DNA from: Verrucomicrobiales bacterium
Lineage (GTDB): Bacteria > Verrucomicrobiota > Verrucomicrobiia > Verrucomicrobiales > DEV007
NCBI GenBank assembly: GCA_002698785.1
Contig: PAAG01000047.1
Coordinates: forward strand, 248,001-312,000
Length of the DNA: 64,000 nucleotides
Direction of reading: 5' to 3'
Shown: positions 946 to 14,121 of the stretch, one piece after another
Numbering within the stretch: position 1 is the first letter of the stretch
How the letters are laid out: the number at the start of each line of letters is the position of its first letter
Translations under genes and position numbers: made by a program
Notes under the pieces: generated by a model
The model's database searches: none
Told to the model about the DNA's origin: nothing
The model's input: the letters and a program-made list of their open reading frames with translations, nothing else

Positions 946-2133
946 ATGGAAACATCCGGAAGCGAGACTGAAAGCGAATCGAAGCTCTGTCCCAGGTGCA
1001 GTGAAACCGGCACTTCGGTCAAAGAGATCACGCTTCGTTCCCTCCTTCACAAAGAGGCGCAGAACAGTATCGCCGGGGCCAAGTGGCGATTCTGCGGGAC
1101 CCCCGACTGCGATGTCGTCTACTTCGACGAGGGCGGCAAAAATCTTCACGAGAAGAATGCGCTGACGGTCCGCGTGGGGATCAAGGAAACCTCTGCGCCC
1201 CGTCCCGTCTGCTATTGCTTCGACCACACTATCGAGGAGATCGAAAGCGATCTCGCCCGGACCGGTTCCACCGGCGTGCTGGACGACATCAAGACCCGGA
1301 TGAAAACCGCGTGCTGGTGTGAAACCAAAAGTCCGAAGGGATCTTGCTGCCTCGGCACGGTCACTCGCGTCGTCGGTCAACTGCAAGCGCATGCCGGCGA
1401 AGCCGCTCCCGAATCAGCGACGGCCCGGAACGGGAATCCCGAAGAGGAGATCGCCGACTGCTGCCTGCCGTCATCGGAAGCCCTCCCCGATGAGAGATCG
1501 CCTTCGACCGGGAGCCATCGTCGCTTTGGCCGGTTCGCTACCGTAGGAGCGATGGTTTCCGCTGTGCTTTCCTCGGCGTGCTGCTGGTTGCCACTGGTCG
1601 TTCTCGCATTTGGAGGATCGATTGCGGGATTGGCGCAGACCTTCGAGCAATGGCGCGGGTGGTTTCTTGGCGGAGCGTTCCTGCTTCTGGGAGCGGCGTT
1701 CTATTTTTCCTACTCGAAAAAGGCGTGCTGCGATTCCGAATCGGGTTGTGAAACAAGCGGACAAAAGATACAACGATTCAACCGAGCCATGCTTTGGATG
1801 GCGGCCGTGTTCGTCGTCGCGATGACCCTTTTCCCCAACCTGCTCACCTCCCTGTCCGGTGGCTCTGAGCGAAGCGCGGACGCATCGGAGTTGGCCGCCC
1901 TGGAAGGGGCCATCGTGCTTCCAATCCAGGGGATGACCTGCGAAGCGTGCGCCGTCTCCCTGCAAAGTCGGCTCGCTGCCGTGCCGGGCACCCAGCGGGT
2001 GGCCGTCGACTACGAAGGAAAACGGGCCGTCGTCCTGTCCCGACCGGATTCGTCCGACCTTCTGGCCGAAATTCGCAGAGGCGTCGAGGAAAGCGGGTAT
2101 TCCATCGCCGAGGAAGAAGGGACTGAAAGGTAG
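946..2133 (+). CDS. CopZ-like iron-sulfur/MerT/MerP fusion, mercury uptake protein
   Basis: This 395-residue protein joins three modules. Residues 1-140 resemble the Archaeoglobus CopZ N-terminal region: Cys pairs at 15/18 and 50/55, then a BFD-like [2Fe-2S] set at C89, C91, C123, C125 and C134/C135. Residues 195-300 are MerT-like, with membrane helices, the vicinal pair C212-C213 in the first helix and a second pair C261-C262. Residues 322-395 are MerP-like, with GMTCEAC at 329-335. MerT and MerP relay Hg(II) from periplasm to cytosol; MerTP fusions are known. The role of the CopZ part is inferred (metal or redox relay). No merA reductase is visible in the window. Confidence 0.85.
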   Translation: METSGSETESESKLCPRCSETGTSVKEITLRSLLHKEAQNSIAGAKWRFCGTPDCDVVYFDEGGKNLHEKNALTVRVGIKETSAPRPVCYCFDHTIEEIESDLARTGSTGVLDDIKTRMKTACWCETKSPKGSCCLGTVTRVVGQLQAHAGEAAPESATARNGNPEEEIADCCLPSSEALPDERSPSTGSHRRFGRFATVGAMVSAVLSSACCWLPLVVLAFGGSIAGLAQTFEQWRGWFLGGAFLLLGAAFYFSYSKKACCDSESGCETSGQKIQRFNRAMLWMAAVFVVAMTLFPNLLTSLSGGSERSADASELAALEGAIVLPIQGMTCEACAVSLQSRLAAVPGTQRVAVDYEGKRAVVLSRPDSSDLLAEIRRGVEESGYSIAEEEGTER

Positions 2134-2313: not shown

Positions 2314-2673
2314 ATGAAGAAAGATCTTTTCAAGAATCAACTCGAACGAGCGGCGCAAGAACTCCGGGGTCGGGGCGATGTCGGCGATCTGCGCGATTTC
2401 GAGCGTGGCGTCTGGGCCGAGATCGCGCTCCACGACGAACGATGGACGACGCGCGTCGTGCGATTTTTCCGCGACGGTGTTCCGACTGTCCCAGTTCCTG
2501 CCATAGCGGGCAGTGTCGCGGTAGCGGTCTTACTGGGCGTTCTCTCGGCGATGGTCCAGGCAAACGCCTACGGCGAATCGCGTTCCGACGCGATGGAGCA
2601 ACGCTACGTCGCCACCATTCATCCCGTCCTCCGTAGCGAGAGTGGAGACCACACCCATTCCGAGTCACCCTGA
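2314..2673 (+). CDS. CnrY-like membrane anti-sigma factor (probable)
   Basis: A 119-residue protein with a polar cytosolic N-terminal half (1-52), one hydrophobic segment (about 60-82) and a short periplasmic tail. This is the layout expected of a single-pass anti-sigma factor. It carries no zinc-finger motif. It is the first of three tightly spaced genes in the order anti-sigma, sensor, ECF sigma, the same order as cnrYXH of Cupriavidus metallidurans. By that analogy it would hold the 3166 sigma factor at the membrane until the 2688 sensor binds metal. Sequence identity to CnrY cannot be judged here, so the call rests on topology and gene order. Confidence 0.6.
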   Translation: MKKDLFKNQLERAAQELRGRGDVGDLRDFERGVWAEIALHDERWTTRVVRFFRDGVPTVPVPAIAGSVAVAVLLGVLSAMVQANAYGESRSDAMEQRYVATIHPVLRSESGDHTHSESP

Positions 2674-2687
2674 CCGAATCTCGAAGA

Positions 2688-3143
2688 ATGCGCTCAATTT
2701 TCACCACTCTCGCCATTTCCCTTGCCGTAGGACTGCTCGCCTTTGGCGCTGTGTTCCTATGGCAGAAGAACCGCATCGACGAGCACCACGACCACCTCAG
2801 CGCGTTCGACTGGTTCTGCGAGGAGTTCGATATCGACGACGCACAACGGGAACGAATCGAGGCACTGCACATCGCCTACTTTCCCGAGTGCGAGGATCAC
2901 TGCATCCACTACGCCGACACGAAACAAACGCTCGCGGAGATCACCGCCGACCCCGACCTGGACGCCCATCCCGAACACGTCGAGGCCGCCGAAGAGCTCG
3001 CGCGGCTGAAGAAGGAGGCCGACAAGAAATTCATCGACTTCATCTACAGCGTCGCCGCCGAAATGGATCCCAAGTCCTCGGAGCGCTACCTGCATCGGAT
3101 GAAGGGATGGCTGGAAAAAACCACCGAAATCGCCGCGGAGTAA
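2688..3143 (+). CDS. CnrX-like periplasmic metal sensor
   Basis: A 151-residue protein with an N-terminal membrane anchor (about 5-25) and a helical, acidic periplasmic domain. Candidate metal ligands are H33, H34 and H36 (DEHHDHL), H61, the C68/H71/C72/H74 cluster, and H136/M138 near the end. The family (CnrX/NccX, related to CpxP/Spy folds) senses Co(II)/Ni(II) and passes the signal to a CnrY-type anti-sigma factor. The ligand layout is not identical to CnrX, so the metal specificity is unknown. It starts 14 bp after the anti-sigma stop and ends 22 bp before the sigma gene. Confidence 0.65.
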   Translation: MRSIFTTLAISLAVGLLAFGAVFLWQKNRIDEHHDHLSAFDWFCEEFDIDDAQRERIEALHIAYFPECEDHCIHYADTKQTLAEITADPDLDAHPEHVEAAEELARLKKEADKKFIDFIYSVAAEMDPKSSERYLHRMKGWLEKTTEIAAE

Positions 3144-3165
3144 CCGCGATGCGAATCATCCGTTC

Positions 3166-3744
3166 ATGGCCGATGAAGAAGACAAGCGTAACATGTGCCG
3201 GCTCCGCGAAGGAGACGATTTCGCGCTGAACGAACTCATGGCCCGGTGGAAGGAACCGGTCGTCACCTTTTGCTTCCGCTACACCGGCAATCTGACCGAC
3301 GCGAAAGAGATCGCCCAGGAGTCCTTCGTCAAAGTCTACCAGGCGCGCCATCGCTACCGCCCGCAGGAAGGTGTCGCCTTCTCCACCTGGCTCTTCCGCA
3401 TCGCTACCAATCTCTGCCGGATGCGGCACCGCTGGAAAAAGCGCCACCCGGAAGTGCTCGCTGCCGACCGGGAGGACAGCGACAGACCAGAAAGTTCGGT
3501 CCACAAGCAGTCGGAAACACCGGTAGAAACGCTGGATCGCAAGAATCTGGCCGCCGATCTCGATGCCGCGATCCAAAGGCTCGCTCCAGATCAGCGAGCC
3601 GCCTTCATCCTGCAGGAATTGCAGGGAAGGTCGCAAGCCGACATCGCTACGATCCAGAATTGTTCGGCGAAAGCCGTCGAAAGGCGACTCGCTCGCGCCC
3701 GTGAGCATCTACGGGAGTCGTTGCGGCACAAGTGGGGCGCGTAG
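3166..3744 (+). CDS. ECF-family RNA polymerase sigma factor (CnrH-like)
   Basis: A 192-residue ECF sigma factor. Region 2 spans about residues 20-88 (ELMARW..., DAKEIAQESFVKVYQAR, FSTWLFRIATNLC). A variable polar linker (92-125) follows. Region 4 spans about 130-185 (RLAPDQRAAFILQELQG, SQADIATIQNCSAKAVERRL). It directs RNA polymerase to its own promoters. Its place after an anti-sigma and a metal sensor indicates that it switches on the downstream efflux genes when periplasmic metal rises. The stop lies 20 bp before the P-type ATPase gene, so cotranscription is likely. The target promoter motif was not identified. Confidence 0.85.
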   Translation: MADEEDKRNMCRLREGDDFALNELMARWKEPVVTFCFRYTGNLTDAKEIAQESFVKVYQARHRYRPQEGVAFSTWLFRIATNLCRMRHRWKKRHPEVLAADREDSDRPESSVHKQSETPVETLDRKNLAADLDAAIQRLAPDQRAAFILQELQGRSQADIATIQNCSAKAVERRLARAREHLRESLRHKWGA

Positions 3745-3764
3745 GCTTCTTTCAATTACCCAAC

Positions 3765-5837
3765 ATGACGACCACAGACCACGACCACCCGCCAGGATCT
3801 CATTCTCACCCGCCATCGAAAAGCGAGGATCACGATCACAGCCAGGGCATTTTCGGAGAAAACACCGAGCTGGCCTTTTCCCTGATCAGCGGCGCCCTGC
3901 TCGGCATCGGATACGCCCTCTCGAAATTCGCCGCCGATGCGGTGCCGTCGTGGCTGGTTCTCGGCTGTTACGTAGCTGCCTACGGATTCGGGGGATGGTT
4001 CGCGGTGCGCGAGGCGGCGGGAAAAATCCGCAAACGGAAGTTCGAGATCGACTTCCTCATGATCGTCGCCGCGATCGGAGCCGCGACCCTCGGCGAGTGG
4101 GCCGAGGGGGCCTTGCTGCTGTTCCTTTTCAGCCTCGGACACGCCCTCGAACACTACGCGATGGGGCGCGCCCGGAAAGCGATCGAGGCGCTCGGCGAGC
4201 TGGTTCCCGACACTGCTCTCGTCCGGAGGGACGGCGAAGTGCGCGAGGTCCCGGTGGACGAACTCGCCGTCGGCGACACGGTCGTCATCAAGCCCGACGA
4301 GAGAATTCCCATCGACGGATTCGTGACCAAGGGAGAAAGCGCCGTCAATCAGGCCCCCATCACCGGCGAGAGCGTCCCCGTGGACAAGCGCCCGGTCGCC
4401 GACATCGAACAGGCGACATCGAGCGGCGGAAAACTCAGCCCCGAGCACGCCCTCTTCGCCGGTTCAATCAACCAGGGCGGAGCGCTGGAAATGCGGGTCA
4501 CCCGGCTATCCCGGGACACCGCCATTTCGCGGGTCGTGAAACTGGTGAGCGAGGCGGAGACGCGCCAATCGCCCACCCAGCAGTTCACCCGCAGAGTGGA
4601 GAGGATCTTTGTGCCCTCCGTGCTGGTGCTGGCGATCCTGTTGCTGTTCGCGTGGGTGGTCATGGACGAGAGCTTTTCCGAATCCTTCTATCGAGCCATG
4701 GCCGTCCTCGTCGCGGCCAGTCCCTGCGCTCTCGCCATCGCCACGCCCAGCGCCGTGCTCAGCGGCGTGGCCCGCGCAGCGCGGGGCGGCGTTCTGGTGA
4801 AAGGGGGCGCCCCCCTCGAAGCCCTGGGGCAGTTGCGGGCCATCGCTTTCGACAAGACCGGAACGCTCACCGAAGGGAATCCCCAACTGACCGATATCGT
4901 TCCCGTCGATGGAGTCGAGGAAGAGGAATTGCTCGCCACCGCCATCCCTGTCGAGAAGCTGAGCGATCATCCGCTCGCGGAAGCCGTCGTCAGGGACGGG
5001 ACCGGGAAACTCGAAGCGGAAAGCTTGCCCGATGCGGAGAATCTCGAGAGCATCACCGGTCGCGGCATCCGTGCCACGCTCGACGGGGAAACCGTCCACA
5101 TCGGTAAGGACGATCTCTTTTCCGAAGTCAAAGGTCCCGGCCTGCCCGATGCGATCCGGCAAACCGTCGAGTCGCTGGAGGCCGACGGACGCACCACTAT
5201 GATCGTGCGGCGGGGCGACCGCTACCTCGGTGTCCTCGGTTTGATGGACACGCCGCGCGAGTCGGCGAAGCGGACCGTCCGCCGACTCCGCGACCTGGGG
5301 ATCAAGCGGATGATCATGATCTCCGGCGACAACCAGAAGGTCGCCGACTCCGTTGCGCGGGAGGTCGGCATCGACGATGCCGCGGGCGACCTGATGCCCG
5401 AAGACAAGGTAGGATTCATTCGCAAGCTCAGCGCCGAGCGTTCCGTCGCGATGGTGGGCGACGGGGTGAACGACGCCCCCGCCATGGCGAACGCGACCGT
5501 GGGGATCGCGATGGGCGCTGCCGGATCCGACGTCGCCCTGGAGACCGCCGATGTCGCGCTCATGGCCGACGATCTCGATCATCTTCCGTTCGCGGTCGGT
5601 CTCAGTCGCAAGACCAGCCGGATCATCAAGCAGAATCTCTGGTTCAGTCTGGGCATGGTCTTCCTGCTGATCCCCGCCACGATCTTCGGATTGAAGATGG
5701 GAATCGCCGTCCTCTTCCACGAGGGATCGACCCTGCTCGTCGTCTTCAACGCCCTCCGGCTGCTCGCCTATCGGGAAAAGCCCGGACCCGTCGAAGAGGC
5801 GATGGCTGAACGTCCCATCCTGCCCGCCCCGAAGTGA
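3765..5837 (+). CDS. P1B-4-type heavy-metal ATPase (Co/Zn/Cd exporter)
   Basis: A 690-residue P-type ATPase that exports metal from the cytosol using ATP. The N-terminus is His/Asp-rich (about residues 5-27), a likely metal-binding tail with no HMA domain. Landmarks are TGES at 200-203, the SPC metal-site triad at 319-321, the phosphorylation motif DKTGT at 363-367, MVGDGVNDAP, and a C-terminal HEGST...NALRLL motif. SPC with the HEGxT motif marks subgroup P1B-4. The frame extends upstream to 3732 inside the sigma gene, but MTTTDHDH at 3765 is the sensible start. It follows the metal-responsive sigma gene. Confidence 0.93.
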   Translation: MTTTDHDHPPGSHSHPPSKSEDHDHSQGIFGENTELAFSLISGALLGIGYALSKFAADAVPSWLVLGCYVAAYGFGGWFAVREAAGKIRKRKFEIDFLMIVAAIGAATLGEWAEGALLLFLFSLGHALEHYAMGRARKAIEALGELVPDTALVRRDGEVREVPVDELAVGDTVVIKPDERIPIDGFVTKGESAVNQAPITGESVPVDKRPVADIEQATSSGGKLSPEHALFAGSINQGGALEMRVTRLSRDTAISRVVKLVSEAETRQSPTQQFTRRVERIFVPSVLVLAILLLFAWVVMDESFSESFYRAMAVLVAASPCALAIATPSAVLSGVARAARGGVLVKGGAPLEALGQLRAIAFDKTGTLTEGNPQLTDIVPVDGVEEEELLATAIPVEKLSDHPLAEAVVRDGTGKLEAESLPDAENLESITGRGIRATLDGETVHIGKDDLFSEVKGPGLPDAIRQTVESLEADGRTTMIVRRGDRYLGVLGLMDTPRESAKRTVRRLRDLGIKRMIMISGDNQKVADSVAREVGIDDAAGDLMPEDKVGFIRKLSAERSVAMVGDGVNDAPAMANATVGIAMGAAGSDVALETADVALMADDLDHLPFAVGLSRKTSRIIKQNLWFSLGMVFLLIPATIFGLKMGIAVLFHEGSTLLVVFNALRLLAYREKPGPVEEAMAERPILPAPK

Positions 5838-6949: not shown

Positions 6950-7173
6950 TTCGCGGGTATCGCCTGTCGCGATCTTGAGCGTCTTGCTCTGCCGCTGAGA
7001 TCGGTCTTCTTCGACCGAATCTCCTGATCACAGATCGATACCCTGTGCCTTGCCCCCTCCGGGGCTGGATTGCGCACACCTCGCGCCTCCGTGCCCATCG
7101 GTTCGGACATGTCTTTTCCGCCCAGCCATCATTTTCACCACAACCACCAACTCTCACGAAACCAAATTTCCCC

Positions 7174-8511
7174 ATGCAACTTCACCCCATACCAAGACCT
7201 CTCGCTGCGGTCTTCTCGCTCCTGTGTCTGGTCGCGGGACCGGGTCTCTCCCACGGCCAGGATGCGAATTCCGTTTTCACCATCGACGAGCTGGTGAGTC
7301 GCGCTCTGGCCGAGAACCCGGAAATCCAATTCTACGAAAGCCAGATCGCAGCCTCGCGGGCCGACCGCCGTCTCGCCGGTCAGTTGGGAAATCCCGAACT
7401 CGACTTCGAGATCGGTCGCAAAACCGCGAGTTCCCGAGGGTTCAGCGCGGAAGGCACGGCCTACGCGGTCAGTGTGGTGCAGCCGATCGAGTGGCCCGGC
7501 CGCATCGGCTTGCGCAAAGCGATCGCCGACGGCGATGTTCAGCTCGCGCGGCTGGGGCTGGAGAGGTTCAAATACCACCTCGCCTCCGAGATCCGCCAGC
7601 TCGCCTTTCGACTCTCGATCGCCCAGGAACGCGCCGCCCTCGCCGAGTCCGTCGCGACCCGGTTCGATGAGGTAAGAGAAGTGCTGCTACAGCGCGAGGT
7701 CGGCGGCATCACTCCGCGGCTAGAGATCAAGGCGATCGAGGCCGCCACCATCACCACCGAGAAGGAAGCGCTCGAAGCCGCGATCGAGATGCAGCGCATC
7801 CTCCTCGAACTGAACCGGCGCATGGGGCGACGCGCGTCCACCCCGCTCACGGTCCAGCGCGTCCGCTACGACTTTCCGGTTCCACGCGAACTGCCTACGC
7901 TGATGACGCAGACGCTCGAGAACAATTACGAGATGCATGTCCGCCGCGCCGAGCTGGCGCAGCAGGGCTTTCGCGTCTCGCTTGCGAAAAACGAGCGCTT
8001 TCCCACCATCAACGTCGGCCCCTATGTCGCCCGGGAGGAGGCCGACGAGATCGAGCGCGAGGCCGGGATTGGCTTCTCTCTGGAACTCCCCATCTTCCGC
8101 AACGGCAAAGCCCAGATCGACCGCGAGCGCGCCCGCGAGGCGCAGGCCGAAGCCCTTGTCGAGACCACCGCCCGCGAACTCGAACAACAAGTCGCCGAGG
8201 CATCCCTCGTCTATCGAAACGCTTGGAAACAGCTCGACGCCTGGGGCGACACCCACCAGACCGAACTGAAAGACGCCGCCGAACTCGCCGACCGTCACTA
8301 CCGGCTCGGCGCGGTCCCCGTCGCCACCTACATCGAGGTACAGGAGAACTACCTCGGGGCACTCTCCGCCATCGCCGATGTCGAGGCCGACGCCCTCGAA
8401 GCTGCCCTTCGCATCGAGCAACTGACCGGTGGCATGCAAGTGCCGGAGACCTCGGGAAAACAAGTCTCGACCGAGCGCAGCCCGATCGTGGCGCGTCCCG
8501 TCAATCCCTGA
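7174..8511 (+). CDS. czcC: TolC-family outer-membrane efflux protein (CzcC-like)
   Basis: A 445-residue outer-membrane channel subunit with a signal peptide (cleavage near GLSHGQ) and two long OEP repeats rich in coiled-coil helices (LVSRALAENPEIQFYESQIA and its C-terminal counterpart). Such proteins trimerise into a tunnel that takes substrates from an RND pump across the outer membrane. The frame is open from 7045, but ATG 7174 gives the signal peptide. It is followed by the adaptor and pump genes in the usual C-B-A order. Upstream sequence is A/C-rich and lacks a purine ribosome site. Confidence 0.88.
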   Translation: MQLHPIPRPLAAVFSLLCLVAGPGLSHGQDANSVFTIDELVSRALAENPEIQFYESQIAASRADRRLAGQLGNPELDFEIGRKTASSRGFSAEGTAYAVSVVQPIEWPGRIGLRKAIADGDVQLARLGLERFKYHLASEIRQLAFRLSIAQERAALAESVATRFDEVREVLLQREVGGITPRLEIKAIEAATITTEKEALEAAIEMQRILLELNRRMGRRASTPLTVQRVRYDFPVPRELPTLMTQTLENNYEMHVRRAELAQQGFRVSLAKNERFPTINVGPYVAREEADEIEREAGIGFSLELPIFRNGKAQIDRERAREAQAEALVETTARELEQQVAEASLVYRNAWKQLDAWGDTHQTELKDAAELADRHYRLGAVPVATYIEVQENYLGALSAIADVEADALEAALRIEQLTGGMQVPETSGKQVSTERSPIVARPVNP

Positions 8512-8565: not shown

Positions 8566-9306
8566 ATGAAAATCCAATCAAGACCAACCCGCAAACTAGC
8601 AATACTCACGACCTGTCTGCTCGGCATCGGATTCGCCGCGTCCGCCGACGACCAGCCCGAGCGCCCCGGCGGTCCCGTCAACGGCGACAACCCGAACATC
8701 GGCATCAAATACGATGAGAAACAGGGACTCAACGTGACTCCGTTTTCTGCAGAACTTCTCGGCCTGAAAATGGCCGATGTCGACGAATCCGAAATCGTCT
8801 CCACCCTTACGCTCCAGGCTCAGATCTACGACAATCCCGGAGCAGGCACCGCACATGCCAGCGCTTGGCTGCCCGAGGACGAAGCGAAACTTCTTCAGCC
8901 CGGCCAGGCGGTTCAACTGGGCGGCAACCGCGCCGGAGAGATCACCTCCATCTCGGACAAGATGAACGGTCAGGCCGAGGTCCTGCTCTCTATCGCGGAT
9001 CCTTCAGGGGAACTGAAAGTCGGGAAATTCCTCTCCGGGGAACTCGCGATCAGCAGCGACGGTCCCGTCACCGTCGTCCCGGAGGATGCGATCATCCATT
9101 CCGCCGAGGGAGCCTTCGCCTACGTCGACAATGGCGGCTGGACCGTCCGCACCCCGGTCGAGGTGGGTGCCGTCGCCGGTGGCAAGGCCGAAATCATCGA
9201 TGGCATCTATTTCGGAGACCGCATCGTGACCCACCCCGTGATGAGTCTCTGGATGGCGGAGCTCCAGCTGCTCAAGACCGGCAAGGCCTGCACCTGCGCT
9301 CACTGA
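8566..9306 (+). CDS. Short RND periplasmic adaptor (CzcB-like) with CTC tail
   Basis: A 246-residue secreted protein in the slot of the membrane fusion protein. The C-terminal two-thirds fit the beta-barrel and membrane-proximal parts of CzcB/CusB adaptors (a segment at about 95-160 followed by VVPEDAIIH and GIYFGDRIV). The lipoyl and alpha-hairpin domains that normally contact the TolC partner are missing, since usual adaptors are about 380-520 residues. It ends in a thiol tail, KACTCAH. It may be a minimal adaptor or a reduced one needing another protein to complete the bridge. Confidence 0.75.
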   Translation: MKIQSRPTRKLAILTTCLLGIGFAASADDQPERPGGPVNGDNPNIGIKYDEKQGLNVTPFSAELLGLKMADVDESEIVSTLTLQAQIYDNPGAGTAHASAWLPEDEAKLLQPGQAVQLGGNRAGEITSISDKMNGQAEVLLSIADPSGELKVGKFLSGELAISSDGPVTVVPEDAIIHSAEGAFAYVDNGGWTVRTPVEVGAVAGGKAEIIDGIYFGDRIVTHPVMSLWMAELQLLKTGKACTCAH

Positions 9307-9357: not shown

Positions 9358-12300
9358 ATGATCAACTGGATCGTCACCCAATCCATGCGGCAGCGCGCCA
9401 TCGTGCTGCTCGCCACGCTGATCCTGATCGGGACGGGCATCTGGTCGGCCACGCAGCTATCCGTGGACGCCGTGCCGGACATCACCCATGTCCAGGTGCA
9501 GGTGAACACGGCGGTGCCCGCACTCGCGCCCGAGGAAATCGAGAATCTCGTCACTTTCCCCATCGAGACGGAGATGGCGGGGCTACCGGGCATGACCGAT
9601 CTGCGCTCGCTCTCGAAATACGGACTTTCCCAGGTGACGATGGTGTTTGAGGACGGGTCGGACATCTACCTGCTGAGGCAGCTCGTCGCCGAGCGTCTCC
9701 AGACCGTGCAGGAGGAAATCCCCGAAGGCCTCACGCCCCAGCTCGCCCCCATCGCCACCGGTCTTGGCGAGATTTTCTACTACTTCATCGACTACGCCGA
9801 GGACGCTCCGAACGTCCCCGAGGATCCGGAGGAACGGCTCATGTCGCTCAAACTGATTCACGACCTCCAGGTGAAACCGCTGCTCAGAGCCACTCCCGGC
9901 ATTACCGAGGTCAACGTCACCGGCGGCTACGAAAAACAGATCGTCATCCAGCCCTACCCCGAGCGCCTCACCGCCGTCGATATGACCCTCGAGGACGTCG
10001 CTGGAAAGATCTCGATGAACACCGAGAACGTCGGTGGTGGTCTCATCGAACTCGGCGGCGAGCAGGTCGTCATCCGGGGAGACAACCGCGTCGCCACCAT
10101 CGAGGAGATCGCCAAGCTGCCGCTGAAATTCGGGGCCGGGGTCGAACCTCTGCTCATCGAGGACATCGCCGAGATCCGCGTAGGGCACAGCTTCCGCACC
10201 GGGGCCGCCACCGTGCGGGGAGAGGAAGCCATCGTCGGCACCGCCGTCATGCTGCTCGGGGAAAACAGCCGCACCGTGTCCGTCGCCGTCGCGGATCGCG
10301 TCGCCGAGATTCAGGAAAAACTCCCCAAGGGCATCGTCATCGAGACCCTCTACAACCGCTCGAATCTCGTCGATGCTACCATTCACACCGTCGAGAAAAA
10401 TCTCTTCGAGGGCGCGATTTTCGTCGTCGTCATCCTTCTGCTCATGCTGGGGAATTTTCGCGCCGCGCTCATCGTCGCCTGCGCCATACCGCTTTCGATG
10501 CTGTTCGCCCTCACCGGGATGGTCACCAACGAAATCTCCGGCAACCTAATGAGCCTCGGCGCGATCGACTTCGGTCTCATCGTCGACGGGGCCGTCGTCA
10601 TGGTGGAGAACATCGTCCGCCACCTGTCCGAGAAACAAAAAGCGCTCGGTCGCCGACTCAACGCGCAGGAGCGCTTCGAGGAAGTGCTCGTCTCCGCCCG
10701 CGAGGTGGCCAACCCCATGTTCTTCGGCGTGCTCATCATCACCGTGGTCTACGTGCCTATACTCGCCCTCACAGGGATCGAGGGGAAAATGTTCCGCCCC
10801 ATGGCGCTTACCGTCATGTTCGCCCTCATCGGTGCGCTGATCCTCTCGCTCACCCTCATGCCGGTGCTCTGCTCCTATTTTCTCAAAGGCGAAATCAAGG
10901 AGAAGGATTCCCGGCTCGTCACCTTCTTCAAATTTCTCTACGAACCCACCTTGCAATTCGCGCTGCGCTTCCGGTGGATCGTCGCCGTGACGATGTTCGG
11001 GCTTTTCGGCTTTTCGCTATTTCTTTTCAGTCGTATGGGGGCCGAATTCGTGCCGGAACTGGACGAGGGCGATCTCACCATCCAGTTCATCCGCAGCATC
11101 AGCGCTGGACTCGATGCCTCGCTCGATCTCCAGCTCAAGTCCGAGAAGCTGCTCCTCGAAAAATTCCCCGAGGTCGAGGATGTCTTCGCCCGCATCGGCA
11201 CCTCCGAGGTCGCCATGGACCCGATGGGGCCAAACCTCGCCGACACCTTCATCATGCTGAAGCCGAAGAAGGAATGGCGCGAGATCGACGGGCGAACCAT
11301 CACCAAGGTCGAACTCGCCAACCTCATGCGCGACGAACTTGCTCTGCACGTACCCGGTCAGGGCTATCTCGTCACCCAGCCCATCCAGATGCGCTTCAAC
11401 GAAATCATGGCCGGCGCCCGCGCCAACCTGCTCTGCAAGATCTTCGGCGAAGACTTCGACGAACTCGAACGTCTCGCTGGAGAAGCCCGCACCATCATCA
11501 CTGCTGTACCCGGTGCAAGTCAGGTCGAGTTCGACAACGTCGGACGAAATCCCACCCTCGAAATTACCCCCGACCGCGAAGCGATGCGCCGCTACAACGT
11601 GCAGGCCGACGAGATCAACGCCGTCGTCCGCGCCGCCCTCGCCGGAGAGGAGACCGGCATGATGATCGACGGCAACCGCCGTTACGAGATCGTCGTGAGA
11701 TTGCCCGAGAAAATCCGCACCGACGTAAAAGCGATCCGCCGACTCCCGCTCCGCACCGAGGACGAGGGCCTCATCACCCTCGGCCAGGTTGCCAACATCG
11801 AGATCGTCCAGCAGGTCGGCACCGTCGCCCGCGAAGCGACACAGCGCCGCGTCTCCATCCTCATCAACAACGAGGGCCGCGACACGGAAAGCTTCGTCGA
11901 GGAAGCCCAGACCGCTTTGCGCGAGCAAATCGATTGGCCAGACGGCTACTACTTCGAGTTCGGCGGTCAGTTCGAGAATCTGATCAAAGCCCGCCAGCGT
12001 CTTTCGGTTGTCGTGCCCGTGGCGATGGGGCTGATCTTCGTGCTCATTTTCATGAGCTTCGGCAGCTTCCGGCAGGCCGCGCTGATCTTCACCTGCGTCC
12101 CGCTCGCCGTCACCGGCGGCATCTTCGCGATGTATCTGCGCGGGATGCCCTTCACCATCTCTGCCGGGGTCGGGTTCATCGCGCTGTCAGGGATCGCCGT
12201 GCTCAACGGGATCATGCTCATCAGCTTCATTAACCAACTCCGCGAGGGAGGCATGGGTCTGCGCGACGCCGTTGTCCAGGGATCGCTCACCCGTCTCCGC

Positions 12301-12552
12301 CCGAAGCTAATGACCGCGCTCGTCGCTTCGTTCGGCTTCATCCCCATGGCTCTCGCCACCGGTCCCGGAGCCGAAGTGCAGCGACCGCTCGCCACCGTCG
12401 TCATCGGCGGGATCATCACCTCCACCATCCTCACCCTCGTCCTGCTGCCCACCCTCTACGAATGGCTGGAGAAGAACCCCGAGCGCCGCAAACTCATCGA
12501 GCAGGAGGGCCTCGAACCCTCCGAGGCCGCCGATCCCGTCGCCGCCACCTAG
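9358..12552 (+). CDS. czcA: HME-RND heavy-metal efflux pump, CzcA/CusA family
   Basis: A 1,064-residue inner-membrane RND pump of normal length. The signature D404...D410...E417 in helix 4 (DFGLIVDGAVVMVEN) matches the proton-relay DxxxxxDxxxxxxE motif of CzcA, and the N-terminal DAVPDITHVQVQVNT is typical of the HME subfamily. It works as a trimer, exchanging protons for periplasmic or cytosolic metal. It starts 51 bp after the adaptor gene. Specificity could be Co/Zn/Cd/Ni (Czc/Cnr) or Cu/Ag (Cus). The cnr-like regulators upstream favour the former. Confidence 0.94.
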   Translation: MINWIVTQSMRQRAIVLLATLILIGTGIWSATQLSVDAVPDITHVQVQVNTAVPALAPEEIENLVTFPIETEMAGLPGMTDLRSLSKYGLSQVTMVFEDGSDIYLLRQLVAERLQTVQEEIPEGLTPQLAPIATGLGEIFYYFIDYAEDAPNVPEDPEERLMSLKLIHDLQVKPLLRATPGITEVNVTGGYEKQIVIQPYPERLTAVDMTLEDVAGKISMNTENVGGGLIELGGEQVVIRGDNRVATIEEIAKLPLKFGAGVEPLLIEDIAEIRVGHSFRTGAATVRGEEAIVGTAVMLLGENSRTVSVAVADRVAEIQEKLPKGIVIETLYNRSNLVDATIHTVEKNLFEGAIFVVVILLLMLGNFRAALIVACAIPLSMLFALTGMVTNEISGNLMSLGAIDFGLIVDGAVVMVENIVRHLSEKQKALGRRLNAQERFEEVLVSAREVANPMFFGVLIITVVYVPILALTGIEGKMFRPMALTVMFALIGALILSLTLMPVLCSYFLKGEIKEKDSRLVTFFKFLYEPTLQFALRFRWIVAVTMFGLFGFSLFLFSRMGAEFVPELDEGDLTIQFIRSISAGLDASLDLQLKSEKLLLEKFPEVEDVFARIGTSEVAMDPMGPNLADTFIMLKPKKEWREIDGRTITKVELANLMRDELALHVPGQGYLVTQPIQMRFNEIMAGARANLLCKIFGEDFDELERLAGEARTIITAVPGASQVEFDNVGRNPTLEITPDREAMRRYNVQADEINAVVRAALAGEETGMMIDGNRRYEIVVRLPEKIRTDVKAIRRLPLRTEDEGLITLGQVANIEIVQQVGTVAREATQRRVSILINNEGRDTESFVEEAQTALREQIDWPDGYYFEFGGQFENLIKARQRLSVVVPVAMGLIFVLIFMSFGSFRQAALIFTCVPLAVTGGIFAMYLRGMPFTISAGVGFIALSGIAVLNGIMLISFINQLREGGMGLRDAVVQGSLTRLRPKLMTALVASFGFIPMALATGPGAEVQRPLATVVIGGIITSTILTLVLLPTLYEWLEKNPERRKLIEQEGLEPSEAADPVAAT

Positions 12553-12589: not shown

Positions 12590-13045
12590 ATGAAAACAAA
12601 ACCAACCATCCAAGCCCTCCTCACCTGTCTCGCACTTGCCGTCGCCCTCCCCGCGATGGCCGATGACGAGGCCAAAGAAGTCGAAGCCGGAGAACGCGGC
12701 GGGCGACTGCTCGCCACCGAGAGTCCCCGACCCGAATTCTTCGTCGAAAAAGACCACACCGTTTCCGTCAAATTCTACGACGCCGACGGGAAAGTCGTGG
12801 CACCGGCCGACCAGCAGGTCACCGTCATCGCCACCGGTGACGAGAAGAAGAAACTCCAGCTCGAGAAAAAAGGCGACGCCCTCGTCTCCACCGAGCCGCT
12901 GCCCGAAGGTGATGGCTACGGACTCGTAGTCCAGGTCCGAGCCGACGCCGACTCCCGCCCCGAGAACTTCCGGTTCACTTTCGTGAACCACATCTGTGGC
13001 GGCACCTGCGGCAACCCCGAATACGCCTGCACCTGCGACGAGTGA
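12590..13045 (+). CDS. Secreted protein with C-terminal Cys cluster
   Basis: A 151-residue protein with a clear signal peptide (about 1-24, cleaved near AMADDE), a predicted beta-rich domain, and a C-terminus holding H135 and five cysteines (HICGGTCGN...ACTCDE). I do not recognise the family. Its last residues resemble the tail of the adaptor encoded at 8566 (ACTC in both), so both proteins may use the same metal- or partner-binding end. It directly follows czcA and probably shares its transcript. A periplasmic metal chaperone delivering to the pump is an inference. Confidence 0.65.
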   Translation: MKTKPTIQALLTCLALAVALPAMADDEAKEVEAGERGGRLLATESPRPEFFVEKDHTVSVKFYDADGKVVAPADQQVTVIATGDEKKKLQLEKKGDALVSTEPLPEGDGYGLVVQVRADADSRPENFRFTFVNHICGGTCGNPEYACTCDE

Positions 13046-13060
13046 TCGCGCGGATTTTCC

Positions 13061-13096
13061 GAATCAACAGGGTTGGGTCATCGACTCAACCCTGTT
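13061..13096. repeat. Palindromic element, copy B1
   Basis: Arms AACAGGGTTG (13066-13075) and CAACCCTGTT (13087-13096) enclose an 11-nt spacer. It begins 15 bp after the stop of the preceding gene. The sequence is nearly the reverse complement of 2194-2228 and nearly the same as the minus-strand reading of 29669-29703. Confidence 0.8.
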
Positions 13097-13103
13097 CGTT
13101 CGC

Positions 13104-13138
13104 GAATCAATAGTATCGGTTCGATGAGTCAATACTAT
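13104..13138. repeat. Divergent palindromic element, copy B2
   Basis: Arms ATAGTAT (13110-13116) and ATACTAT (13132-13138) surround a spacer that includes TCGATGAGTCA. It keeps the GAATCAA start and the TCAA before the right arm seen in B1, but with different, compensating arm bases. It is nested between TTCGTTCGC (13095-13103) and GGCGAACGA (from 13145). Confidence 0.6.
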
Positions 13139-13159
13139 CCGATCGGCGAACGAGCAGAA

Positions 13160-13194
13160 CCCAAAACCCAAAACCCAAAACCCAAAACCCAAAA
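13160..13194 (+). repeat. Five tandem CCCAAAA units in a gene leader
   Basis: Five perfect head-to-tail 7-bp units end 6 bp before the ATG at 13201. The unit resembles a telomere-type repeat by chance, but here it forms the 5' leader of the Cys-rich gene. It has no G or T, so it would be unstructured in mRNA. It is an extreme case of the A/C-rich leaders seen in this window. Confidence 0.9.
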
Positions 13195-13200
13195 GAGAAC

Positions 13201-13515
13201 ATGAATAAAACCCCACTAACAATCGTTCTTCACGCCGCGGCCTTTGCAGCCGTGCTTCTCCTCGGCTCACCAGCCGAAGCCGTTCCACCGAATAAGGTCC
13301 CCGGAAAGGGATACTTCGATGGCAACCTGTCGAAAAACAAGACAGCGTGCTCGCACTGTCGCGACTGCAAGAACTGCGACAAATGCGGGAAGTGCGACTC
13401 CAAAGCCAAAGCGAAGAATTGCTGTGCCGCTTCGCGTTGCGCGAAGATCGTTCCGGCACGTCCCGATTCGTCCAAGAATCCCCGAACCCCCTATTGGAAG
13501 CGAAAACTACCCTAA
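13201..13515 (+). CDS. Secreted metallothionein-like Cys-rich protein
   Basis: A 104-residue protein with a signal peptide (about 1-27, cleaved near AEAVPP), a basic linker, and a central block with cysteines at 50, 53, 56, 59, 62 and 65. Six cysteines are spaced exactly every three residues, followed by C74, C75 and C80. The interspersed K, R, H and D residues and the lack of aromatics in the block resemble metallothioneins, but bacterial metallothioneins are normally cytosolic and have other Cys patterns. It sits between the RND cassette and the CDF gene, which supports a periplasmic metal-buffer role by inference. No described family was recognised. Confidence 0.75.
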   Translation: MNKTPLTIVLHAAAFAAVLLLGSPAEAVPPNKVPGKGYFDGNLSKNKTACSHCRDCKNCDKCGKCDSKAKAKNCCAASRCAKIVPARPDSSKNPRTPYWKRKLP

Positions 13516-13527
13516 GCTACCGATAAG

Positions 13528-14121
13528 ATGAGCGACTGCGACTGCCACGATTCCGCGAACGAGATTCAGGAGCGCTCCGTCCTCTGGACACTGCTCGCCA
13601 TCAACGGCGGCATGTTCGTAGCGGAGATGATCCTCGGCATCGTCGCCGACTCGACCGGGCTGGTCGCGGACTCGCTCGACATGCTGGCCGATGCGACCGT
13701 CTATGGTATCGCGCTGTGGGCGGTCGGTCGTGCCGCATCTGCGAAACGGGGAGCGGCGCGTTTCAGCGGCTGGTTCCAGATCGCGCTCGCGGTGGGGGTG
13801 CTGCTCGACATCATCCGCCGATTCATCTACGGCAGCGATCCCGATTTCTGGTTCATGCTAGGCGTCGGTGTTGCCGCCTTGATCGCCAACGTCACTTGCC
13901 TCGCCCTGCTCGCGAAACACCGCAAGGGCGAAGTCCACATGCGGGCGAGCTGGATTTTCTCTAAAAACGACGTCATTGCCAACACCGGCGTCATCCTCGC
14001 CGGCGCACTCGTCCATTTCACCGGCACCCGCTGGCCCGACCTCGCCATCGGTCTCCTCATCACCGTCGTCGTGTTCCGAGGCGGACTGTATATTCTGAAG
14101 GACTCAGAAAGCCAAAAATAG
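13528..14121 (+). CDS. Cation diffusion facilitator family transporter
   Basis: A 197-residue membrane protein with about six hydrophobic segments and no C-terminal cytosolic domain. The N-terminus carries a small C4/C6/H7 motif. The helix-2 motif GLVADSLDMLAD places D51 and D55 at the usual HxxxD metal site. The helix-5 counterpart is SKNDVIAN (D148, N152) instead of HxxxD, so the site is Asp/Asn-rich. CDF proteins exchange cytosolic divalent metal for protons. It starts 12 bp after the metallothionein-like gene and closes the metal cassette. Specificity is uncertain because of the altered site. Confidence 0.82.
   Translation: MSDCDCHDSANEIQERSVLWTLLAINGGMFVAEMILGIVADSTGLVADSLDMLADATVYGIALWAVGRAASAKRGAARFSGWFQIALAVGVLLDIIRRFIYGSDPDFWFMLGVGVAALIANVTCLALLAKHRKGEVHMRASWIFSKNDVIANTGVILAGALVHFTGTRWPDLAIGLLITVVVFRGGLYILKDSESQK

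What the first reader, a model, noticed from the sequence alone, without database searches (positions are those of the whole stretch)
13201..13515. Secreted metallothionein-like protein with six CxxC-spaced cysteines
Cysteines every third residue from 50 to 65 plus three more, behind a signal peptide, in a metal-efflux cassette. A periplasmic metallothionein-like buffer would be new to my knowledge.
Basis: partly seen in the sequence, partly recalled or inferred. Interest (0 to 1): 0.7.

Follow-up and report, generated by a model that had tools for sequence, protein, structure and literature searches.

The report
Exported cysteine-rich metal sponge candidate
A small secreted bacterial protein in a heavy-metal efflux operon really does carry a ladder of six evenly spaced cysteines and probably soaks up metal outside the inner membrane, but its relatives carry anywhere from none to six cysteines in all, so the ladder is a recent elaboration of a small, little-known protein family rather than a conserved metallothionein.

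Summary
Window 13201-13515 (+) encodes 104 aa with a Sec-type signal peptide and cysteines at 50/53/56/59/62/65 plus 74/75/80. It lies after czcA and p151, with its stop 12 bp before a half-CDF gene. It is under purifying selection (dN/dS about 0.14) and matches nothing in Pfam, NCBIfam or PDB sequences. I found five relatives, all in the same Verrucomicrobia family and all near metal-efflux genes. Their mature parts hold 6, 3, 3, 0 and at least 4 cysteines. What they share is the ends (signal peptide, P-x-x-K-x-x-G start; in most, a PYWKKK-like C-terminus), not the ladder. The closest relative (67%) lacks three residues of it. Sister cassettes with 84-89% identical CzcA lack the gene at this place. 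Best reading: an exported, probably disordered, thiol-bearing metal sponge accessory to divalent-metal efflux. It may work like PcoE/SilE or Csp1, but it fails the membership tests for bacterial metallothioneins that I could run. The claim that a periplasmic Cys-rich buffer would be new is overstated, because periplasmic Cys-rich copper-storage proteins exist. The better-conserved exported thiol site in this operon is in the neighbour p151. Metal binding is untested.

The parts
13201..13515 (+). exported Cys-rich protein, 104 aa; signal peptide 1-27, conserved VPPNKVPGKGYFDG 28-41, six-rung CxxC ladder 50-65, CCxxxxC 74-80, conserved basic PYWKRK end
13348..13395 (+). CxxC ladder coding stretch (six TGY codons, 9-base period); closest relative lacks nine bases here
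13067..13160 (+). two strong hairpins in the 155-bp gap between p151 and this gene; also strongly folded, with sequence changes, in the closest relative; absent together with the gene from two sister cassettes
12590..13045 (+). p151, exported protein with a beta-rich core (low-confidence model) and a conserved Cys tail (HICGGTCGNPEYACTC); accompanies CzcA-family pumps across the class
13528..14121 (+). half-length cation diffusion facilitator (membrane part only)
9358..12552 (+). CzcA/CusA-family RND pump; DFG...DGA...EN sequence typical of divalent-metal pumps (general knowledge)
   Evidence: sequence
8566..9306 (+). CzcB-type periplasmic adaptor ending in CTCAH
7045..8511 (+). CzcC-type outer-membrane channel
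3732..5837 (+). P1B-type ATPase with SPC motif
2314..3744 (+). possible anti-sigma protein, Metal_resist-like periplasmic protein and ECF sigma factor (cnrYXH-like arrangement), candidate regulator of the cassette

Best explanation
It is a small Sec-exported, unstructured, strongly basic envelope protein that binds soft divalent metal ions (Zn, Cd, possibly Co/Ni) through thiolates. It would act as a short-term sponge, or as a hand-on pool, for the CzcCBA efflux system encoded with it. Shown: the sequence, its selection, the signal peptide by inspection, the operon context, and metal-gene context for all five relatives. Inferred: export, metal binding, which metal, and the direction of hand-on. 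The family's fixed parts are its two ends. The middle is a changeable ligand segment, here a CxxC ladder that has nine more bases than the closest relative.
For: Ladder and signal peptide. Purifying selection on the gene. Context: RND cassette with CDF, P1B ATPase, Metal_resist-like and ECF sigma genes. All five relatives near metal genes: two in the same cassette, before or after the CDF; one between a CopZ-MerT-HMA fusion and a DUF3347 gene; one beside a DUF3347 gene and a CopA-type ATPase in the window's own genome; one directly downstream of a CopA-type ATPase, with a Met/Cys 7-residue repeat, truncated at a contig end. No DsbB or VKOR found in the genome, which leaves reduced thiols in the envelope plausible. 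The AlphaFold model is low-confidence and mostly without structure (pLDDT 45), as expected for an apo metal sponge but also for any protein modelled from two sequences.
Against: Cys number is not conserved (9, 6, 3, 3, 0 and at least 4), and the paralogue in the same genome has none. Two sister cassettes with 84-89% identical CzcA lack it. Absence of DsbB/VKOR is weak evidence: the genome is about 96% complete and other oxidants exist. No binding data.
Confidence: 0.52

Rival explanations
1. Structural envelope peptide: the cysteines are oxidised to disulfides or cross-links and the protein binds the cell envelope through its basic ends. Metal context is incidental or only regulatory.
For: Ends are conserved, Cys are not; mature part has 19 K/R to 5 D/E; a Cys-free paralogue exists.
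Against: All relatives sit in metal-efflux neighbourhoods; evenly spaced CxxC is a poor layout for a disulfide fold; odd number of Cys here (9); no DsbB or VKOR seen.
Confidence: 0.2
2. Periplasmic sensor or regulator peptide (role like CzcI or CnrX) that tunes the ECF-sigma or pump response instead of storing metal.
For: Small exported protein in a cassette with a Metal_resist-like/ECF sigma unit.
Against: Sister cassettes lack it; the Metal_resist-like protein could already fill the CnrX-like role; no metal site conserved across relatives.
Confidence: 0.12
3. Metal hand-on factor that the adjacent half-CDF or CzcB needs for transport itself.
For: Its stop codon is 12 bases before the CDF start; in G019 it follows the CDF.
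Against: The CDF is adjacent to p151 with no such gene in G128 and G099.
Confidence: 0.1
4. Iron-sulfur or other redox protein (CxxCxxC is a ferredoxin-type spacing).
For: Spacing only.
Against: Exported by a Sec-type signal, so cluster insertion is unlikely (general knowledge); no ferredoxin model match; spacing not kept in relatives.
Confidence: 0.04

Closest known systems
Bacterial metallothioneins SmtA/BmtA (Pfam Metallothio_Pro)
   Same: small size, nine cysteines, metal-resistance setting
   Different: no family match; signal peptide; aromatic residues; only one His in the mature part; ladder not conserved; known bacterial metallothioneins are described as cytosolic (PMC8790569)
Csp1-type copper storage proteins (M. 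trichosporium Csp1; gonococcal NGO1701, PMC12510493)
   Same: exported, many Cys, metal buffering outside the cytoplasm
   Different: Csp1 uses a Tat signal and a four-helix bundle lined with Cys and binds Cu(I) (PMC7558416); here no twin-arginine motif, no predicted fold, and a divalent-metal operon
PcoE/SilE periplasmic metal sponges (PMC7558416)
   Same: small exported accessory of an efflux operon, proposed first-line sponge
   Different: PcoE/SilE bind Cu/Ag, mainly through His/Met (general knowledge); here thiols, and no sequence match
CzcI/CnrX-type small periplasmic proteins of czc/cnr operons
   Same: position in an RND metal operon
   Different: no sequence match; a CnrX-like role could be filled by the Metal_resist-like protein at 2688-3143

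Membership tests
Bacterial metallothionein (PF02069) | match to the family's curated profile | tested here: not met
   no metallothionein hit in Pfam or NCBIfam for it or four relatives
Bacterial metallothionein (PF02069) | high Cys content conserved across the family | tested here: not met
   9 here; 6, 3, 3, 0 and at least 4 Cys in relatives
Bacterial metallothionein (PF02069) | cytosolic location | tested here: inconclusive
   Sec-type signal peptide by inspection, AxA site kept in all relatives, speaks against; location not measured
Bacterial metallothionein (PF02069) | metal-thiolate cluster formation | not testable with these tools
   needs protein
Csp1 copper storage protein | Tat signal | tested here: not met
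   no twin arginine in the signal peptide
Csp1 copper storage protein | four-helix bundle with inward-facing Cys | tested here: inconclusive
   model shows two short helices only, but pLDDT is 45
PcoE/SilE metal sponge | sequence similarity, His/Met metal sites | tested here: not met
   no profile hit; 1 His and 0 Met in mature part
PcoE/SilE metal sponge | exported small accessory of a metal-efflux operon | tested here: met
   operon context; signal peptide by inspection only
PcoE/SilE metal sponge | binds several metal ions in the periplasm | not testable with these tools
   needs protein

The most novel reading that the evidence does not exclude
A modular family of exported metal sponges with fixed ends and an interchangeable ligand-bearing middle: CxxC ladder beside a divalent-metal pump, Met/Cys 7-residue repeat beside a copper ATPase, no cysteine in a third copy. 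It would evolve by gain and loss of short repeats as the partner pump changes.
Probability: 0.28. Interest if true: 0.6.

Novelty: new variant of a known kind. Interest (0 to 1): 0.4.

Why it matters
If it binds metal, it would be a thiol-based exported sponge that uses the Sec route and so would be loaded outside the cytoplasm, in a phylum where envelope metal handling is little studied. It would show how a metal-binding segment can be grown in small steps on a fixed carrier. The nearby p151 family, with its nearly invariant four-Cys tail beside CzcA-family pumps across the class, is probably the more important envelope metal-handling protein.

Tried and rejected
Family models: none matched. 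PDB sequences: only CXXC zinc-finger proteins at E 0.27-1, treated as composition chance. Plasmids and viral contigs: no relatives. Phylum-wide profile search (388 sampled genomes): only the window's own genome gave convincing hits; marginal ones at E 3e-4 to 7e-3 were not accepted. Rfam: only sub-threshold hits to a hairpin miRNA family, taken as chance. A DNA-level search for six-rung ladders gave mostly simple 9-bp repeats; an irregular hit in G076 matched no listed ORF that reads as a ladder. Low-confidence hits in G071, G116, G065 and G108 share a signal peptide and little else and were rejected. Structure: low confidence. The p151 model is a low-confidence beta-rich fold; its Foldseek hits, all with E above 0.001, include FetP, CrdA and CopC among many Ig-like folds and were not used as evidence.

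Full report
What is there. The reading frame at 13201-13515 (+) is as described: 104 residues, Cys 50, 53, 56, 59, 62, 65, 74, 75, 80. A six-rung ladder arises in 48 of 2,000,000 random placements of nine Cys in the mature part, and no other frame of the window holds one. The protein starts with a Sec-type signal peptide by inspection (MNKTPLTIVLHAAAFAAVLLLGSPAEA|V); there is no lipobox and no twin arginine. The mature part is very basic (19 K/R, 5 D/E). Comparison with the 67%-identical relative in L003 gives dN 0.22, dS 1.6, ratio 0.14, similar to the neighbouring CDF (0.11), so the gene is very probably translated and under selection.

Surroundings. Upstream lie a MerR regulator and a CopZ-MerT-HMA fusion, then a possible anti-sigma protein (no Pfam match), a Metal_resist-like protein (E 1.6e-5, just under the curated cut-off) and an ECF sigma factor, an arrangement like cnrYXH. 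Then follow an SPC-motif P1B ATPase, CzcC, CzcB and CzcA, an exported 151-aa protein (p151), the gene in question, and a CDF with only its membrane half. p151 starts 38 bases after czcA. The 155-base gap from p151 to this gene contains two strong hairpins (z -4.9). The CDF start codon follows this gene's stop by 12 bases.

Relatives. The named-genome collection gave one. Whole-genome searches in the order, family and phylum gave only these, all in the window's own family: L003/G136 between p151 and the CDF, 6 Cys; a second copy in G136 between a CopZ-MerT-HMA fusion and a DUF3347 gene, with a P1B ATPase nearby, 3 Cys; a second copy in the window's own genome about 48 kb away, beside a DUF3347 gene and a CopA-type ATPase, 0 Cys; G019 after the CDF of the same cassette, 3 Cys; and G099 directly downstream of a CopA-type ATPase, at least 4 Cys in a Met/Cys 7-residue repeat, truncated by the contig end. 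Support for the last two is moderate: G099 scored E 1.4e-8 with a profile it was not part of; G019 scored 2.8e-4 with the first three-sequence profile and has conserved synteny.

What is conserved. Across all six only the signal peptide's AxA site, the P-x-x-K-x-x-G start and one C-terminal lysine are invariant. Five of six keep an R-x-P near the end and four of six PYW[KQ][KR]K. The Cys ladder is private to the window: the closest relative has CNKC...CGKC, lacking three residues (nine bases) and with serines or other residues at the other rungs. A closely spaced C...C pair (x4 or x5 between) near the end of the Cys region is shared by four.

Gain and loss. In G128 and G099, with CzcA 89% and 84% identical, p151 and the CDF are about 10 bases apart and neither the hairpins nor the gene is present between them. 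So hairpins and gene occur together as a block of about 480 bp in G000 and G136, while in G019 the gene follows the CDF and its upstream gap has no strong hairpin. In some 40 other czcA-p151 loci across the class no such gene was seen, by the motif screen used.

Interpretation. Metal context of every relative, the thiol-rich middle and export make a metal sponge the best single reading. The non-conservation of Cys argues against calling it a metallothionein and lowers confidence. Absence of DsbB and VKOR matches in the genome makes reduced thiols outside the cytoplasm plausible but proves nothing. The pump sequence (DFG...DGA...EN), the SPC ATPase and the cnrYXH-like unit point to divalent ions such as Zn, Co, Ni or Cd rather than Cu for this cassette (general knowledge, not tested).

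Known systems of similar function. Periplasmic Cys-based metal storage exists: Csp1-type proteins are Tat-exported (PMC7558416) and gonococcal Csp buffers periplasmic copper (PMC12510493). PcoE/SilE are periplasmic metal sponges in efflux operons (PMC7558416). The held library contains no paper using the phrase 'periplasmic metallothionein', which says little by itself. I therefore rate this a new variant of a known kind, interest 0.4.

The neighbour. 46 of 47 collected p151 homologue sequences (the set contains a few overlapping copies of the same loci) have a C-terminal Cys pair followed by EYAC-x-C, and they lie next to CzcA-family pumps throughout the class. There is no Pfam family for it. 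It is a stronger candidate for a general envelope metal-binding partner of these pumps.

Noticed in passing
window 12590-13045: p151: exported protein with no Pfam match and a nearly invariant Cys-pair...EYACxC tail; homologues in 73 of 286 genomes sampled from the class, beside CzcA-family pumps where the locus was read.
   Followed up: partly
window 13067-13095 and 2165-2222; G000 contig C50 240552-240596: A 30-40 bp palindrome (ACAGGGTTGGGTC..GACTCAACCCTGT) occurs in three intergenic places of one contig, all among metal genes; the BLAST search of the genome found no other convincing copy.
   Followed up: partly
window 946-2133: Fusion of a CopZ-type zinc-binding domain, a MerT-like membrane part and an HMA domain; a homologue lies beside a relative of the finding in G136.
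   Followed up: no
window 8566-9306: CzcB-type adaptor ends in CTCAH; similar Cys/His tails occur in some but not all homologues.
   Followed up: no
window 13528-14121: CDF transporter of 197 aa lacking the cytoplasmic domain, with a CDCH N-terminus (MSDCDCHDS).
   Followed up: no
window 13158-13194: Perfect 7-bp tandem repeat (AACCCAA, 5.3 copies) just before the start codon, much shorter in the closest relative.
   Followed up: no
L087 7432-7830 (-): Secreted 132-aa protein with several CxxC pairs next to the Cys-free paralogue in the window's own genome.
   Followed up: no
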